Position numbers and translations under genes: made by a program
Shown: piece by piece, positions 29,800 through 40,330 of the stretch
How positions within the stretch are numbered: the stretch's first letter is position 1
Layout of the letters: each line of letters begins with the position of its first letter
Assembly: GCA_024278375.1 (NCBI GenBank)
Contig: JAJRTH010000002.1
Location: 1-41,694, forward strand
DNA from: an archaeon
GTDB taxonomy: Archaea; Thermoplasmatota; Thermoplasmata; WALJ01
Length of the DNA: 41,694 nt
Direction of reading: 5' to 3'
The notes under the pieces: generated by a model
Database searches by the model: none
The model's input: only the letters and a program-made list of their open reading frames with translations
Told to the model about the DNA's origin: nothing

Positions 29800-30024
29800 A
29801 ACAACCTATTCTCAATTACTCCACCCTTCCCTTTCTCCTGAACTTCCTGTTCAATGCGAGGATGAAGAGCACAGTAATTTCCCCCAATTATGATTTGCAA
29901 ATTACGATTTTCAGAACAATCAGTCATTCGCTCAATGTAAAAAGCTTCCAGTCCCCACCCACATCGAAAAGCCCTAGGCGAAAACTATAAGTAGATAATC
30001 TACATTATGATATGTGTGATTATC
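29800..30024. other. Intergenic region with possible relic of a membrane-anchor end
   Basis: On the minus strand, 29818-29880 can be read as GEITVLFILALNRKFRRKGRVE followed by a stop, like the last helix and basic tail of a surface protein. Nothing upstream continues it. The right part is AT-rich and holds a TATA-like actataagta (29985-29994) for the ATPase gene at 30025. Otherwise I see nothing in it. Confidence 0.3.
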
Positions 30025-31365
30025 ATGTTCGTAGGACGAAAAGAAGAGCTCGAAAATATAAGAAAACGGCTGAATTCCAGCGACTTTGAGCTTCTGGTAA
30101 TCTACGGCAGGAGAAGGGTCGGAAAGACCAGACTCATGCTCGAAGCCGTGAAAGACATGGAGCACATCTATTATCTTGCGATAGAAGGGGACAATCTCAG
30201 ACATTTCAAGAGAGTTGCGTCCAGAGCGGTACCTGAGATATCCTATCTTGAAGAGGACTGGGAGAATTATTTCAGATTCCTCAAACACAGGACAGTCATC
30301 ATAGATGAATTCCCGAACCTGATAAAGGAAAATAAGGGCGTTCTCTCCATATTCCAGAGGATTGTTGATACCGAACTAAAAGACACGAATACGAAACTGC
30401 TGCTCTCAGGTTCTTCTGTATCCATGATGGGGGAGGAAGTCCTTAGTTATGGAAGTCCGTTATACGGAAGAAGAACCAGCTCGATAAAGCTTAAACCGCT
30501 GAAGTTCTGGGAAATAAAGGGTTTTTTCCCTGACTCCGATCTTAGAGAAATAATAGAGATATATGCTTTTGCGGATGGCATTCCCTATTATCTCGAAAGA
30601 ATTGAGGCACCTTTCTGGGCATGGCTGAAAACTGAACTCGGGAATTCCGGAACTTTCCTCAAAGATGAGGTGGATTTTCTGATAAAATATGAATTTGAAG
30701 AGGTGAACACATACAAGAAGATTCTTGAAGCAATAGCACTGGGAAAAAGAACCCCCAAGGAAATAAGGGATTATCTCGGCCTGAAGCACTCCGATATAAC
30801 TCCATATCTGAGAAATCTCATGGAGACAGAGTTCATAACGAGGGAAATCCCGATTTTCGATGGAGCGAAATCCAAAAAAGGCAGATATTATCTTAAAGAC
30901 AACTTTACCGCTTTCTGGTTCAGATATATCTATCCGAATCTTTCCGCTATAGAGTAAAGAATATTCGAAATAGACCCGATAAAGGCTGATTACCCTACAT
31001 ATCTGGGGAGAATATTCGAGGAAATCTCTAAGGATTTTTTAGTAAAACTCAGAAAAGACGGAAAGACACCTGTCAGATTCACCAGAATAGGAAAATGGTG
31101 GCATCAGGATACTGAGATTGATATCGTGGCGGTGGATGAGACAGATAAAGAGATTATTTTCGGAGAGTGCAAATGGCAGGAAAATGTAAATGCGAAGAAG
31201 ATACTCGAAAAACTCAGGGAAAAAGCAGAGTATTTGGGGTGGAACAAGGATAAAAGAAAAGAATATTACATGATATTCGCAAGGTCTTTCAAAAACAGGC
31301 CGGAAGATTGCTACTGTTTTGATATGAAGGACATGGAAAGACTGGCGTTTCGAAATCATACATAA
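30025..31365 (+). pseudogene. Archaeal ATPase with DUF234 nuclease-like C-domain, broken by one in-frame TAA
   Basis: Residues MFVGRKEELENIRKRL...IYGRRRVGKTRLML (Walker A GRRRVGKT), TVIIDEFPNL (Walker B) and LLLSGSSVSMM (sensor 1) are typical of the archaeal ATPase family with a C-terminal DUF234. The frame ends at TAA 30955-30957 (YIYPNLSAIE-stop) but continues in the same frame as RIFEIDPIKADYPTYLGRIFEEI to a natural end at 31365, including TEIDIVAVD...IIFGECKW, a PD-(D/E)XK signature. Joined, the length (446 aa) is normal. It is a recent nonsense mutation or a base-call error. Members often lie in mobile or toxin-like contexts. Confidence 0.87.
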
Positions 31366-33187: not shown

Positions 33188-34084
33188 TCACCTTCTCATT
33201 AATCCTTTTTTTGCCATCTGGTGTGCTCTTCTTGTTGGCTCGGGTATCCTGTGACCCATGAAACTTTCCGTTATCTCCCTCGCCTTTTCGAGAGATATCA
33301 TGTTTCCCGGCGATACATATACCGGATTCTTCGCTTTTCCTCCTAGAAGCGCATATCCGACCACTTTATCATTCAGTATAATCTCTCCCTTTTTAACATC
33401 CGGCCATCGAAACTCCCCGCACAGAAGGTTTTTTGCAACTCCGATGGTCGGAATTCCCGCTTTTATGCCGACATATGATGCCAGACCCAGGTGTTCTGGA
33501 TGAAGTATCCCGTTTCCGTCCACCATAAGCGCCTCTATCTTGTGGGAGGATCCCGATATCGCTTCGAGAATCAGCGGACCTTCTCTGTATGAGAGGTAGG
33601 TCGGTATGTAGGGTAAGCTCACGGTAGTCTCTAAAATCTCATCCCAAAGGCGGAGACCCGATATTTCGAAGCAGGATAGTGCCACAAACGCATTATTCCC
33701 CGAATACGCCACGTCCACACCCACAATCCTGTCGAACTCATAATCGTTAAGGTCTATGGAGGAGCGCATATTTTCCTGCTCCTTCCTGAGCTTTTTCAGT
33801 ATTCCTGTTCCCGATGCCATGAAATCATTGAATATCGGGGCTTTGGCCTTTCCGTCGATTACTGTGATTTCTCTCAAAGCTCTGCTATCGAGGATGCTCA
33901 TGTCCTCTCTTACCACCCTCCAGAAAGGCCCGTCTATGGAAGGCAGCATCCGGGCTATGGCCCTCACGGCCCTCCTGTCTCCCAGCACATCCGCTATATC
34001 TGTGAGTCTGGCAACCGTTCCCTCAGGAATCTGACATATGGCGCTCTCCAGTTCCTTTCTGAATTCTAACCCATAATCTTCCAT
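33188..34084 (-). CDS. Fusion of an alkyltransferase-like domain (no catalytic Cys) and endonuclease V
   Basis: Residues 8-65 form the helix-turn-helix end of O6-alkylguanine-DNA alkyltransferase (IPEGTVARLTDIADVLGDRRAVRAIARML), but the active-site PCHRV is PFWRVV (53-58), so both the acceptor Cys and the His are gone. Residues ~115-298 are endonuclease V, which cuts next to deoxyinosine: VGVDVAYSG (Asp124), PYIPTYLSYREGP (Glu168), MVDGNG (Asp189) and HPEHLGLASYVG. An active alkyltransferase-endoV chimera is known from Ferroplasma acidarmanus; here only the endoV half should be catalytic, and the front half may only bind alkylated bases. The gene overlaps purL by 19 bp. Confidence 0.87.
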   Translation of the reverse strand: MEDYGLEFRKELESAICQIPEGTVARLTDIADVLGDRRAVRAIARMLPSIDGPFWRVVREDMSILDSRALREITVIDGKAKAPIFNDFMASGTGILKKLRKEQENMRSSIDLNDYEFDRIVGVDVAYSGNNAFVALSCFEISGLRLWDEILETTVSLPYIPTYLSYREGPLILEAISGSSHKIEALMVDGNGILHPEHLGLASYVGIKAGIPTIGVAKNLLCGEFRWPDVKKGEIILNDKVVGYALLGGKAKNPVYVSPGNMISLEKAREITESFMGHRIPEPTRRAHQMAKKGLMRR

Positions 34085-36385: not shown

Positions 36386-36631
36386 TCACTCCCTCTTCAC
36401 TTCCACAGTGTATTTGTGAATAACAGGGTTTGCCAGGATCTTTCTGCACATCTCCTTTCCCGTATCCAGGGCCTTCTCTTCATCGCTCTCATCAACCTCA
36501 ACCTCAAAGACCTTTACGCTCCTAACCTTTTTTACCTCGAAACCGAGAAGTTCCAGAGCTTTCTTTGTGTTTTCACCTTCGGGGTCCGCAACGCCCTTTT
36601 TGAGCTCAATCCTGACTTCAAGTAATGTCAT
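36386..36631 (-). CDS. purS: Phosphoribosylformylglycinamidine synthase subunit PurS
   Basis: The 81-aa protein (LLEVRIELKKGVADPEGENTKKALELLGF...NPVIHKYTVEVKRE) is the typical PurS subunit that links PurL and PurQ. Its stop is 1 nt before purL. A TATA-like cccttaaaacc (36653-36663, minus strand) sits at leaderless distance from the ATG. That promoter is directly beside the left copy of the 17-bp island repeat. Confidence 0.93.
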   Translation of the reverse strand: MTLLEVRIELKKGVADPEGENTKKALELLGFEVKKVRSVKVFEVEVDESDEEKALDTGKEMCRKILANPVIHKYTVEVKRE

Positions 36632-36668: not shown

Positions 36669-36685
36669 CTATCCGAAGAAATCTT
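36669..36685. repeat. Left copy of the 17-bp direct repeat bounding the RiPP island
   Basis: The sequence ctatccgaagaaatctt is identical to 39797-39813. It lies between the purS promoter and the exporter stop codon and codes for nothing here. Read on the minus strand it repeats the last five codons and stop of tsr3. Confidence 0.92.
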
Positions 36686-36691
36686 TTTGTT

Positions 36692-38326
36692 TTATGTAGG
36701 TTGTTCAGATTTAGCATCTGCTATTGTATCTACAGGAGTTGCTGTGATTTTTTGCATTATCTCTTGGAATTTTTTACAAACATTTGGCCATTTGAAGTCA
36801 CAAACTATCCGTCCTCTGGATAGAACTATGACCCTCTCCATCTGCTGAATTGTAGAAAATCTGTGAGAAATCACAATAAAAGTGGGCACTCTTTCTTTAA
36901 TAATATTTATTATCTGTGTTTCCAATTCTGGATGTACTCCAGACATAGCTTCGTCCAATATCAGAACATCGGGCTTTTTATTTAGTGCACGGATAATGGA
37001 GACTCTTTGCCTCTCCCCCAGAGATAACTTGCGTTCTGCTCCGGGTCCTATCTTCTCATCTAAGGACATATCAAGAATTTCGGGAATCGTCTTTCCCATT
37101 ATATTTTCTCCATAAGTGCCACCAAAAATGGGCTCTTCACCAGTTACAAGGACGATTCTCCCTCTAAGAGATTTTAAATCATATTTTTCGGCTGATATTC
37201 CATTTATTTCGTAACTCCCTTTATCTGGGAGATATAATCTATTTAGAAGCCTAGCTAATGTTGTTTTACCACTTCCAGTTGGTCCAACTATACCTATTTT
37301 CTCACCTCTATTTATATGTAAATTGTATTTCATTCCTAAGTATTCTCCAGAGAAATGCATCGTATTAATCCGCCTCAATTTTTTATTTCCTCCTTTTTCA
37401 TTAGGAATGTCAATAATACTTCGAACACGCTCAAGAGAAGGTATCATCTGAGGTATAGCACCGATATCTGTTGCAAGAGTTGCCAGAGGTTCCATCACAT
37501 TTCCAGAGAAATAAAAATAAACAATTATTGCTGCTGCATCAATAGCCGTAATTTTGGATAACATAAAAAGAACGATAAGGGGGATGACCATAGAAAGAAC
37601 CGAATAAAGAAAAACATAAGAACGTAAGATCCCGACAACTTTCTTGGACCGAGAAAACCATTCTTCGGTTTCTTTTTTAAGAGTTAATGCGGATTTTTTT
37701 TCCAGCCCCATACTTTTTATGGTAGGTATCGCCTCTACTTTTGCCCTTACGCTTTCTACAATGCTTGAAAAGGCATTTCTCTCCTGAAACGAGGCCTTTA
37801 TTAGGATATTGGATTGTTTCAAGTAGATTAGAATAAAAAGAGGTACGAAAAGAAGAATGAGAAATGGCAAATAAATATTTAATACGTAAAGTGCCAAAAG
37901 ATACCCAATAAATCTCAGTAGATTTATTATAATAGCTGGCCATAGAGCACCTACAACATTTCCAGCCATTTCTGTATCTGATAAAAATTTTGCAATAAAA
38001 TCTCCAGGTGTGGTTGTTCTAAGCTTTTCCAAAGGTGCTGATACAAGTTTTTCATACATAGAAGAAAGCAACCGCATCTGCACCAATTTCTTGACTATAT
38101 CGACTATATATGTTGCTACTGATGAAGTCAACACAAAAAGAATTCCGATACCGATAGCCAGTATGAAAATAGTAGGATCTCCCCAATTATTAATAAATTG
38201 CTTAAGTACTAATGCATAATATATCCCGATCATTACAGACAATAATTGAACGAGAACCATTATGGATTGATACTTTCTAATGCCCGTAAGCTTGCTATAT
38301 TCCCATATTAATTTCATTGTTTTCAT
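36692..38326 (-). CDS. ABC exporter, fused permease-ATPase, for the RiPP
   Basis: The 544-aa half-transporter has six predicted membrane helices in residues ~20-280, followed by an ATPase domain with Walker A GPTGSGKTT (348-356), Q-loop-region GEEPIFGGTYGENI, signature LSLGERQRVS (433-442), Walker B DVLILDEAMSG and switch VISHR. It should work as a homodimer and export the modified peptide. It has no N-terminal C39 peptidase, so leader removal must be done elsewhere. The stretch between Q-loop and signature is short. The start is 1 nt after the maturase stop, and the stop is 6 nt from the island's left repeat. The gene is AT-rich. Confidence 0.9.
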   Translation of the reverse strand: MKTMKLIWEYSKLTGIRKYQSIMVLVQLLSVMIGIYYALVLKQFINNWGDPTIFILAIGIGILFVLTSSVATYIVDIVKKLVQMRLLSSMYEKLVSAPLEKLRTTTPGDFIAKFLSDTEMAGNVVGALWPAIIINLLRFIGYLLALYVLNIYLPFLILLFVPLFILIYLKQSNILIKASFQERNAFSSIVESVRAKVEAIPTIKSMGLEKKSALTLKKETEEWFSRSKKVVGILRSYVFLYSVLSMVIPLIVLFMLSKITAIDAAAIIVYFYFSGNVMEPLATLATDIGAIPQMIPSLERVRSIIDIPNEKGGNKKLRRINTMHFSGEYLGMKYNLHINRGEKIGIVGPTGSGKTTLARLLNRLYLPDKGSYEINGISAEKYDLKSLRGRIVLVTGEEPIFGGTYGENIMGKTIPEILDMSLDEKIGPGAERKLSLGERQRVSIIRALNKKPDVLILDEAMSGVHPELETQIINIIKERVPTFIVISHRFSTIQQMERVIVLSRGRIVCDFKWPNVCKKFQEIMQKITATPVDTIADAKSEQPT

Positions 38327-38327
38327 G

Positions 38328-39584
38328 TTATCCCTCTATAAAATGGCTGTAGTATTTAGATATGCTTTTTATAATTTTGCATTCCTCATCATAGGGGGCC
38401 GAAATATCCCCTTTGATTAGATACCTCTTTCCTAGGCATTGTTTACAGGTATATCTCAGCCAGCATGAATGGCATTTTTTTGATTCGGATTTTGTATTAT
38501 TTAACAGAGATTCTCGTATACTCCAAAATTTTTCATCAGGAAAATTTTTTAGAATATTTCCCATATTAAAATTTGGATACATTAACCAATAACAGGGAAA
38601 AACATCTCCCCTTGGATCTACTGTTAAGGTGTCAATACCTGCCATACATGGCCATGGTGATATAAGATTTGCACTTAAAAGACCCCTCCATTCATTCAAA
38701 CTTTGTGCCTCTTTATTATTTTGACCGAGATATTTCATTAATTCTTTCATTTGGGTAAAGATATGAGCATAGTACTCTTTGCTATTTTTCAAAGAAAATT
38801 CCCAAACAATATAAACATCATCGAAACCCAGAGATTTTATATGCGTCCAGACATCAACCATACTGACTTTACTTTCTATATGTTTGTGTGTATATGTTAC
38901 TTCAGCTATTATTTTCCCTTTTCTGGGCTTATTGAGTATTTCTTTTAAGCCTTTGACAACAATCTCATATGTCCCCTCGCCATTGAGAAATACTCTATTC
39001 AAATCGTTAATTCTTTTTGGACCGTCTAGACTAATATAGATTAAGTCTATATTCTCTGCTAAAAACTGAGCTGTATCTGTATCGATGAGTGTGCCATTAG
39101 TGTTTAGGATATATTTTACATATTTAAAATTATTTTGTTTTAAGTGAGAAATAATATATTTCATAGTATCTATATTAAATAGTGGCTCACCTCCAAAAAA
39201 TTGTATAAATCGAAAAGATTTATTTGAAAGTTTTCTTATTTTCTGGAGGGCAATCCTTGCAGTTTTTTTGGACATCAGTTCGTGACTCTTTGTTTTATAT
39301 ATATCATTTGTATAACAATATTTACATGCCAAATTACATCCTGTCGTCAGAATAAAAGTTAATTTATCAATATATATTTCTTCTGCATATCTAATATTTG
39401 TTTGTATGTTTTTGGCAGGCAATCTCTCATCTTCATAGATTTTTGAAATATCTCTCAATAGTTCAGACAGACTAGATCCTTCTATCTTCCAAAGAGAAGC
39501 TGTAGGGATGTGGTAGTATAGAGACCCTGACATATGAAAAAAATTAAAAAATGATAATATATTTTTTTGTGGGATATGTGCCAT
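38328..39584 (-). CDS. Radical SAM/SPASM peptide maturase
   Basis: The 418-aa enzyme starts at ATG 39584, with gaggtga overlapping the precursor stop. Residues 1-75 form an N-terminal domain that may recognise the leader (HMSGSLYYHIPTASLWKIEGSS), as in Cys-rich-peptide maturases. The radical SAM core has the CNLACKYC cluster motif (Cys83, 87, 90) and GGEP at 131-134. A SPASM domain carries seven cysteines: 313, 331, 371, 374, 380, 383 and 402 (CHSCWLRYTCKQC). Such enzymes form thioether or related crosslinks in small precursor peptides; sactipeptide or ranthipeptide chemistry is the best guess. The exact bond is not readable. Confidence 0.93.
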   Translation of the reverse strand: MAHIPQKNILSFFNFFHMSGSLYYHIPTASLWKIEGSSLSELLRDISKIYEDERLPAKNIQTNIRYAEEIYIDKLTFILTTGCNLACKYCYTNDIYKTKSHELMSKKTARIALQKIRKLSNKSFRFIQFFGGEPLFNIDTMKYIISHLKQNNFKYVKYILNTNGTLIDTDTAQFLAENIDLIYISLDGPKRINDLNRVFLNGEGTYEIVVKGLKEILNKPRKGKIIAEVTYTHKHIESKVSMVDVWTHIKSLGFDDVYIVWEFSLKNSKEYYAHIFTQMKELMKYLGQNNKEAQSLNEWRGLLSANLISPWPCMAGIDTLTVDPRGDVFPCYWLMYPNFNMGNILKNFPDEKFWSIRESLLNNTKSESKKCHSCWLRYTCKQCLGKRYLIKGDISAPYDEECKIIKSISKYYSHFIEG

Positions 39585-39593
39585 ACTTTCACC

Positions 39594-39710
39594 TCAGGTC
39601 AAACAACCTGCCCCACATATTCCCGGCCCTGAAATGCATCCTACCACACATGCACCCATTGCAGGTTCCGGTTGTGATCCGGCTTTGGTTATTGCGATTT
39701 TTGTAGCCAT
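39594..39710 (-). CDS. Cys-rich RiPP precursor peptide (38 aa)
   Basis: ATG 39708-39710 is preceded by aggtga at 4 nt, and the frame ends at TGA 39594-39596, 9 nt before the maturase ATG. The peptide has a 20-residue leader (MATKIAITKAGSQPEPAMGA) and a core with the symmetric pattern CVVGCISGPGICGAGC: two CX3C pairs 6 residues apart (Cys21, 25, 32, 36), then Leu-Thr. The Gly/Cys/small-residue composition and the CX3C spacing recall sactipeptides such as thuricin CD. It is too short for normal gene finding. Cleavage before Cys21 at the Gly-Ala is possible but inferred. Confidence 0.88.
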   Translation of the reverse strand: MATKIAITKAGSQPEPAMGACVVGCISGPGICGAGCLT

Positions 39711-39754
39711 TTTTTCACCTTGCCTATTGAGGCATAAAGGGAGATAGAGAGCTT

Positions 39755-39765
39755 CTATATATATC
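39755..39765 (-). promoter_or_regulatory. TATA box of the RiPP operon
   Basis: On the minus strand gatatatatag lies about 45 nt upstream of the precursor ATG. Transcription should start near 39733 with a leader of about 20-25 nt that holds aggtga (39715-39720). The promoter is inside the island, so the cluster brought its own. Confidence 0.68.
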
Positions 39766-39796
39766 GATTAACTGTTCCGAGATTTCCATGTCAACT

Positions 39797-39813
39797 CTAT
39801 CCGAAGAAATCTT
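39797..39813. repeat. Right copy of the 17-bp direct repeat, equal to the 3' end of tsr3
   Basis: ctatccgaagaaatctt on the plus strand is the reverse complement of the last 17 nt of tsr3, from its stop codon (39797-39799) inward. The identity with 36669-36685 stops at both ends: flanks are tcaact / cctcct here and gtatcg / tttgtt there. Confidence 0.92.
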
Positions 39814-40330
39814 CCTCCTCTTCCCTGACCTTTTCAGGGCTGTCGGCCATGGCGTATGCTTGCAGCGGCTCTTTATTCAATATGAAGAAATTCTCTCCCC
39901 ACTTGAACTTCGACATTATTTTCCTTGCCTGCTCCCGAAAGCCGATGATAAAAAGGGCTGCTGCAAATGCCTCTGCCGTGCTGAGCCTGTAGGGTTTTCC
40001 ATAGTTTATCGGGTTCGCCGCAAGAAGTATGGGCAATCTCCGGGATATGTGTCTTCTCGTCTGAAAATAACTCCTTTCCTCCTTGTTCCATGAAGAGTCG
40101 ACAGCGGATATTCCCCTTAAAACTGCTGTCTGCCTGTCCCCCTTCCAGAGCACATCCTCCACAAATGGATTAAGGAGTATCGAGCCTGATGGAAGCCTGC
40201 CGATATTTCTGAATTCCTTTGCAAATCCGAATCTGGCCATCTTTCTTCCAGTTGACTTCCTCGGATCATCCTCTCCTGCCTGAAATATGTAAAGGCGAAT
40301 ATCAGAAGTCGAAGAGGGTTTTCTGGGCAT
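39797..40330 (-). CDS. tsr3: Tsr3-type rRNA aminocarboxypropyltransferase
   Basis: The 177-aa protein matches the Tsr3/DUF367 family: RLYIFQAGEDDPRKSTGRKMARFG at the front, ILLNPFVEDVL, AVDSSWN and LPILLAANPINYGKPYRLSTAEAFAAAL. In eukaryotes Tsr3 transfers the aminocarboxypropyl group of SAM to a modified pseudouridine of small-subunit rRNA; archaeal homologues are expected to do the same on 16S rRNA. Its start overlaps the end of the PHP gene by 29 bp. Its final bases are one copy of the 17-bp island repeat, and the frame is intact. Confidence 0.92.
   Translation of the reverse strand: MPRKPSSTSDIRLYIFQAGEDDPRKSTGRKMARFGFAKEFRNIGRLPSGSILLNPFVEDVLWKGDRQTAVLRGISAVDSSWNKEERSYFQTRRHISRRLPILLAANPINYGKPYRLSTAEAFAAALFIIGFREQARKIMSKFKWGENFFILNKEPLQAYAMADSPEKVREEEEDFFG

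What the first reader, a model, noticed from the sequence alone, without database searches (positions are those of the whole stretch)
36692..39763. Complete archaeal RiPP cassette: Cys-rich precursor, radical SAM/SPASM maturase and ABC exporter
Three genes on one strand, with 9-nt and 1-nt gaps, share one TATA box. The SPASM maturase has all expected cluster cysteines, and the exporter lacks a C39 peptidase. Radical SAM RiPP systems are well known in bacteria but few archaeal ones are characterised, so the product may be a new archaeal thioether peptide, perhaps an antimicrobial or signal.
Basis: partly seen in the sequence, partly recalled or inferred. Interest (0 to 1): 0.93.

Follow-up and report, generated by a model that had tools for sequence, protein, structure and literature searches.

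The report
Mobile archaeal modified-peptide gene cassette
A complete set of three genes for making, chemically modifying and exporting a small cysteine-rich peptide sits in an archaeal chromosome as a recently moved 3.1-kb island, and two distantly related archaea carry the same set, so it is a real but untested archaeal peptide system that spreads between species.

Summary
Precursor (38 aa), radical SAM/SPASM maturase (418 aa) and peptidase-less ABC exporter (544 aa) lie on one strand, with 9-nt and 1-nt gaps, behind one TATA-like box. It is not chance: two genomes from other families of the same class carry the same genes in the same order, with maturases about 36% identical and a short ORF directly upstream ending in CxxGC-x(2-6)-CxxGC. 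The maturase's closest relatives are ranthipeptide (thioether) maturases of the PapB and SCIFF/CteB types. It scores far below every curated family cut-off, and the precursor matches no family. It is 34% G+C in a 48% G+C window, and an exact 17-bp direct repeat flanks it. That repeat is the 3' end of the neighbouring tsr3 gene. One congener has the empty site (tsr3, single copy, purS). Another has the island at the same site, with island ends 99.4% identical over 309 bp against 91% in the flanks, so the island moved after the species split. No recombinase is inside. Best reading: a non-autonomous, site-specifically integrated cassette for an exported, probably thioether-bridged archaeal peptide. 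The thioether chemistry, product and function are untested.

The parts
39594..39710 (-). precursor peptide, 38 aa, MATKIAITKAGSQPEPAMGACVVGCISGPGICGAGCLT
   Evidence: ORF and translation; homologous short ORFs directly upstream of the maturase in G093 (L034:4794-4892) and G320 (L045:7609-7725); pattern is rare; no NCBIfam or Pfam match
38328..39584 (-). radical SAM/SPASM peptide maturase, 418 aa
   Evidence: Pfam Radical_SAM and SPASM; NCBIfam best PapB 183 bits, SCIFF maturase 157 bits, both below cut-off; PDB best CteB 5wgg by sequence and by fold
36692..38326 (-). ABC exporter, fused membrane + ATPase domains, 544 aa, no C39 peptidase
   Evidence: Pfam ABC_membrane and ABC_tran; MsbA/peptide-exporter relatives
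39756..39764 (-). TATA-like box (ATATATATA), about 50 nt upstream of the precursor start; 10 bp longer (TA repeats) in G003
   Evidence: sequence; alignment with G003
39797..39813 (.). left copy of the 17-bp direct repeat CTATCCGAAGAAATCTT (last codons and stop of tsr3), attachment-site-like
   Evidence: the repeat finder D6; only two copies in the genome even with 2 mismatches; shuffles never exceed 13 bp
36669..36685 (.). right copy of the 17-bp direct repeat, between the exporter and purS
   Evidence: single-copy empty site in G001
36686..39796 (.). A+T-rich island (coding part 34% G+C, rest of window 48.5%) carrying only the three genes
   Evidence: island ends 2 differences in 309 bp between G000 and G003 versus 8.6% in flanks
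39797..40330 (-). host gene tsr3 (DUF367, 16S rRNA aminocarboxypropyltransferase family) whose 3' end is the insertion site
   Evidence: NCBIfam PRK02287 over cut-off
36386..36631 (-). host gene purS, on the other side of the insertion; directly next to tsr3 in G001
   Evidence: NCBIfam TIGR00302 over cut-off; G001 order

Best explanation
A self-contained archaeal RiPP cassette carried on a small non-autonomous mobile island. The 38-aa precursor is made; the radical SAM/SPASM enzyme, most like ranthipeptide maturases, probably installs one or more intramolecular Cys-to-carbon thioether bridges in the C-terminal CxxGC...CxxGC core; the dedicated ABC exporter moves the product out and may also protect the producer. 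The leader is either kept or removed by a host protease, since the cassette encodes none. The 3.1-kb unit entered the tsr3-purS intergenic site by site-specific recombination at a 17-bp block equal to the 3' end of tsr3, restoring that gene, and has moved between congeneric species after they diverged. Shown: gene content, conserved synteny, empty and filled sites, lower divergence of the island ends. Inferred: thioether chemistry, export of the modified peptide, recombinase acting in trans.
For: Same three genes in the same order in three families of the class: G000, G093 and G320. Ten invariant maturase cysteines and a shared CxxGC...CxxGC core in the precursors. Nearest curated maturases are PapB and SCIFF thioether formers for all three members; best PDB match CteB by sequence, 2e-46, and by fold. 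Mobility: G+C 34% against 48.5%; exact 17-bp flanking repeat; empty site in G001; both junctions in G003, with 2 differences in 309 bp of island against 238 in 2,764 bp of flank; sporadic occurrence, 3 hosts among roughly a thousand genomes of the class and phylum; absent from G001, G002 and G004.
Against: No experiment; chemistry is inferred from maturases only 24-30% identical. The N-terminal 70 residues do not model and do not match the leader-binding domain of SCIFF maturases, so leader recognition is not shown. No protease and no recombinase in the island. Only 309 bp of the G003 island are assembled, and its maturase is not in that assembly. The two repeat copies in G003 differ at two positions. 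The structure search is biased because the alignment used for the model was made of SCIFF-type maturases.
Confidence: 0.74

Rival explanations
1. A real RiPP cassette, but the maturase does not make thioethers: it epimerises, forms C-C or other bonds, or the cysteines bind a metal in the product.
For: No family cut-off is met; SPASM maturases do many chemistries (PMC8326336). G093's core has six cysteines, so the pattern tolerates variation.
Against: Closest families are thioether formers. The core has no aromatic residue, which disfavours cyclophane-type C-C links, and no Asp/Glu in G000 and G320, which disfavours PapB's exact Cys-Asp/Glu links. Cysteines are the conserved core residues.
Confidence: 0.25
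2. The three genes form an operon, but the short ORF is not a precursor; the maturase acts on another protein, as QhpD or sulfatase maturases do.
For: Some close relatives (QhpD/PeaB, anSME) modify full-size proteins.
Against: Cys-rich short ORFs with a shared core lie directly upstream of the maturase in all three cassettes and are rare elsewhere; no dehydrogenase or sulfatase gene is in the cassette; the island carries only these three genes.
Confidence: 0.05
3. The flanking repeat is a target-site duplication of a transposon, or the island was moved by homologous recombination, rather than by site-specific integration.
For: No integrase gene in the island; direct repeats are also left by transposons.
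Against: The repeat is 17 bp and ends exactly at the stop codon of tsr3; the search listed no inverted-repeat pair joining the two ends. Divergence rises from 0.6% to about 9% at the repeats on both sides, so homologous exchange through the flanks is unlikely. In G003 the right copy keeps the stop TAA found in G001 and the left copy has TAG, as attL/attR hybrids would.
Confidence: 0.2
4. The island is ancestral to G000 and G003, was lost precisely in G001 by recombination between the repeats, and its ends are merely under strong constraint.
For: Precise excision between repeats would also give the G001 site; the precursor is under constraint.
Against: The 120 bp at the right end include the exporter tail and non-coding DNA, yet are 100% identical, while the purS-side flank differs by 8.8%; the island is otherwise absent from the family genomes searched.
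Confidence: 0.12

Closest known systems
SCIFF ranthipeptide system (ScfA/ScfB; CteA/CteB, PDB 5WGG)
   Same: Short Cys-rich precursor just upstream of a radical SAM/SPASM maturase; CteB is the best PDB match by sequence and fold.
   Different: Precursor lacks the six-Cys SCIFF core; maturase 157 bits against a 425-bit cut-off; dedicated ABC exporter; SPASM run CX2CX5CX2C; no recognisable leader-binding domain.
PapB ranthipeptide maturases (freyrasin type, NF047865)
   Same: Best-scoring curated maturase family for all three members.
   Different: 136-183 bits against a 340-bit cut-off; no Asp or Glu acceptors in the G000 and G320 cores for CX3D/E crosslinks.
Sactipeptides (thuricin CD, streptosactin)
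   Same: Small hydrophobic, Gly- and Cys-rich core; streptosactin shows unnested rings with a Gly acceptor (PMC8172795), a layout that would fit the Gly-rich CxxGC repeats.
   Different: Cysteines run to the third-last residue, so the classical nested hairpin of most sactipeptides is unlikely; maturase is not closest to sactisynthase families.
Predicted archaeal radical-SAM RiPP clusters (PMC12144867)
   Same: Same broad category, reported from antiSMASH mining of archaeal genomes including Thermoplasmatota.
   Different: The passages read report category counts, with only lanthipeptides characterised; no family with this precursor core and no mobile cassette is described in them.

Membership tests
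RiPP biosynthetic cassette | ribosomal precursor gene next to a modifying enzyme, conserved as a pair | tested here: met
   three genomes of different families, same order
RiPP biosynthetic cassette | leader recognition domain (RRE) in or beside the maturase | tested here: inconclusive
   N-terminus not modelled (pLDDT below 50) and no profile match to the SCIFF-maturase N-terminus
RiPP biosynthetic cassette | post-translational modification of the precursor | not testable with these tools
   needs mass spectrometry
RiPP biosynthetic cassette | leader-removing protease in the cluster (common, not universal) | tested here: not met
   no protease gene in the island and no C39 domain on the exporter
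SCIFF (TIGR03974 maturase, six-Cys peptide) | maturase above curated cut-off | tested here: not met
   157, 135 and 121 bits against 425; a true SCIFF maturase scores 784
SCIFF (TIGR03974 maturase, six-Cys peptide) | six cysteines in about 45 residues with the conserved SCIFF core | tested here: not met
   four cysteines in G000 and G320, six in a different pattern in G093; SCIFF peptides seen look different
PapB family (NF047865) | maturase above curated cut-off | tested here: not met
   183, 148 and 136 bits against 340
PapB family (NF047865) | CX3D/E crosslink motifs in the precursor | tested here: not met
   no Asp or Glu in the core of P0003 or P0008
Radical SAM/SPASM enzymes | CX3CX2C plus seven-Cys SPASM pattern | tested here: met
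   ten invariant cysteines, Pfam Radical_SAM and SPASM over cut-off; last spacing CX2C instead of CX3C
Ranthipeptide (radical non-alpha thioether peptide) | Cys thioether to a non-alpha carbon | not testable with these tools
   chemistry only inferred from nearest maturases
Site-specific integrative element | direct repeats at the ends matching the target, with target restored | tested here: met
   17-bp repeat equals tsr3 3' end and tsr3 remains intact; empty site in G001
Site-specific integrative element | own integrase | tested here: not met
   none in the island; six Phage_integrase matches elsewhere in the genome

The most novel reading that the evidence does not exclude
A transferable archaeal RiPP cassette: a new family of exported, radical-SAM-modified peptides whose three genes travel as a recombinase-less unit integrating at the 3' end of the conserved tsr3 gene with a trans-acting integrase, so that producer and non-producer strains of one archaeal genus differ by this one island, as in bacteriocin-style competition.
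Probability: 0.4. Interest if true: 0.72.

Novelty: new variant of a known kind. Interest (0 to 1): 0.57.

Why it matters
According to PMC12144867, only two archaeal lanthipeptides had been experimentally validated before that study, and its own products are lanthipeptides too. This minimal three-gene unit is small enough to express directly, comes with two diverged homologous cassettes as controls, and has congeners with empty and filled sites. That makes it possible to test whether archaea exchange peptide weapons or signals as mobile cassettes.

Tried and rejected
Single-sequence scans of genome contigs and viral contigs with the maturase found nothing. Phage and plasmid collections hold only distant relatives, the best listed at 24-27% identity. 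Direct repeats around the G093 and G320 cassettes: none of 12 bp or more within 1.5 kb. RRE homology of the maturase N-terminus: not supported. Defence-system models: only weak generic radical SAM and ATPase matches. Organism name not available; archaeal origin rests on CDC48, DUF367/Tsr3 and PurS; class Thermoplasmata is my guess from the sizes of complete genomes in the class.

Full report
Observation. The three genes are present at the stated coordinates on the minus strand: precursor 39594-39710, maturase 38328-39584, ABC exporter 36692-38326, with gaps of 9 and 1 nt. A TATA-like ATATATATA lies about 50 nt upstream of the precursor and a GGTGA site precedes the precursor and the maturase. 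The exporter has ABC_membrane and ABC_tran domains and no C39 peptidase.

Is the cassette real? A maturase search of related genomes found one close relative, in G093 of another family of the same class, and a class-wide search found a second, in G320. Both lie in the same cassette: short Cys-rich ORF, maturase, ABC exporter, same order and strand. The maturases share about 36% identity and ten invariant cysteines: C83, C87, C90 of the radical SAM cluster and C313, C331, C371, C374, C380, C383, C402 of the SPASM domain. The three precursors, MATKIAITKAGSQPEPAMGACVVGCISGPGICGAGCLT, MVEEVKLSTTANGAKIAGGGGCAVGCIGVGICGVGCMM and MISEIKLSGHNPQPCGGDCCLGCGACLGGCKE, share a short leader-like start and a C-terminal CxxGC-x(2-6)-CxxGC core. 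In 1.3 Mb of held sequence a short frame with this pattern occurs at these three cassettes and once elsewhere. The precursor reading is therefore well supported.

What does the maturase do? NCBIfam ranks PapB ranthipeptide maturases first (183 bits, cut-off 340), then SCIFF maturases (157, cut-off 425) and QhpD (154, cut-off 453); no cut-off is met. The two relatives also score PapB first, at 148 and 136 bits. Bacterial relatives found by scanning genomes are 24-30% identical and mostly SCIFF-type maturases with a SCIFF peptide upstream. By sequence the best solved structure is CteB, the SCIFF maturase. An AlphaFold model has a confident barrel, and its best PDB match is also CteB, but the alignment behind the model was built from such maturases. 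Residues 1-70 do not model and do not match the SCIFF leader-binding domain. SCIFF and PapB products carry Cys-to-side-chain thioethers (PMC8326336, PMC9413430), so a thioether product is the best inference. The G000 and G320 cores have no Asp/Glu acceptors of the PapB kind, and none of the three has aromatic residues. With cysteines up to the third-last residue, the classical nested sactipeptide hairpin is unlikely; small unnested rings, as in streptosactin (PMC8172795), would fit. This step is inference.

The island. The cassette genes are 34% G+C in a window otherwise at 48.5%, with third-position G+C of 26-33% against 54-57% in neighbouring genes. An exact 17-bp direct repeat, CTATCCGAAGAAATCTT, stands at 36669-36685 and 39797-39813. 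The second copy is the last codons and stop of tsr3, the first lies just upstream of purS. It occurs nowhere else in the genome with up to two mismatches, and shuffled flanks never share more than 13 bp. In congener G001 tsr3 is followed by one copy and then directly by the purS upstream sequence: the empty site. In congener G003 both junctions are present on two contigs. The island sequence there differs from G000 at 2 of 309 bp (plus one 10-bp TA-repeat length change), while the flanks differ at 238 of 2,764 bp, and the change in divergence falls at the repeats. A first Fisher test, using tsr3 alone as the flank (37 of 534), gives p = 5e-6. In G003 the right copy ends TAA like the empty site and the left copy ends TAG, as expected if the element brought its own version of the block; in G000 both copies end TAG, so this last point is suggestive only. 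The island holds no recombinase, and the repeat search listed no inverted-repeat pair joining its two ends; the genome has six phage-type integrase matches elsewhere. The simplest reading is a non-autonomous, site-specifically integrated unit that moved after G000 and G003 diverged. Sporadic occurrence elsewhere agrees: single hosts in the orders of G093 and G320, none in G001, G002 or G004.

Known or new. Radical-SAM RiPP clusters have been predicted in archaea in bulk, Thermoplasmatota included, but the passages read describe only lanthipeptides as characterised (PMC12144867). The precursor and maturase here belong to no curated family. I file this as a new variant of a known kind: a new archaeal radical-SAM RiPP family, works-like a ranthipeptide system but not shown to be a member, on a recombinase-less mobile cassette.

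Limits. No product, transcript or mass data exist. The G003 island is only sampled at its ends. Organism names are withheld for the archaeal genomes; archaeal origin rests on CDC48, DUF367/Tsr3 and PurS.

Noticed in passing
39745-39765: The TATA-like box of the cassette is 10 bp longer in G003 (extra TA repeats) while the rest of the promoter is nearly identical; repeat-length change could tune expression.
   Followed up: no
30007-30957: ATPase_2 family protein ('predominantly from Archaea') in a second A+T-rich stretch (about 40-41% G+C); PADLOC PDC-S27 match of unknown meaning.
   Followed up: partly
33188-34084: One ORF joins an O6-methylguanine methyltransferase DNA-binding domain to endonuclease V, a fusion of two DNA-repair domains.
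   Followed up: no
L047:5563-7275: Clostridium sp. SIG253 carries an orphan radical SAM/SPASM maturase (30% identical, below all cut-offs) behind two near-identical 39-aa ORFs ending GYGFGCNCQ/GYGFGCACS, a likely separate uncharacterised RiPP.
   Followed up: partly
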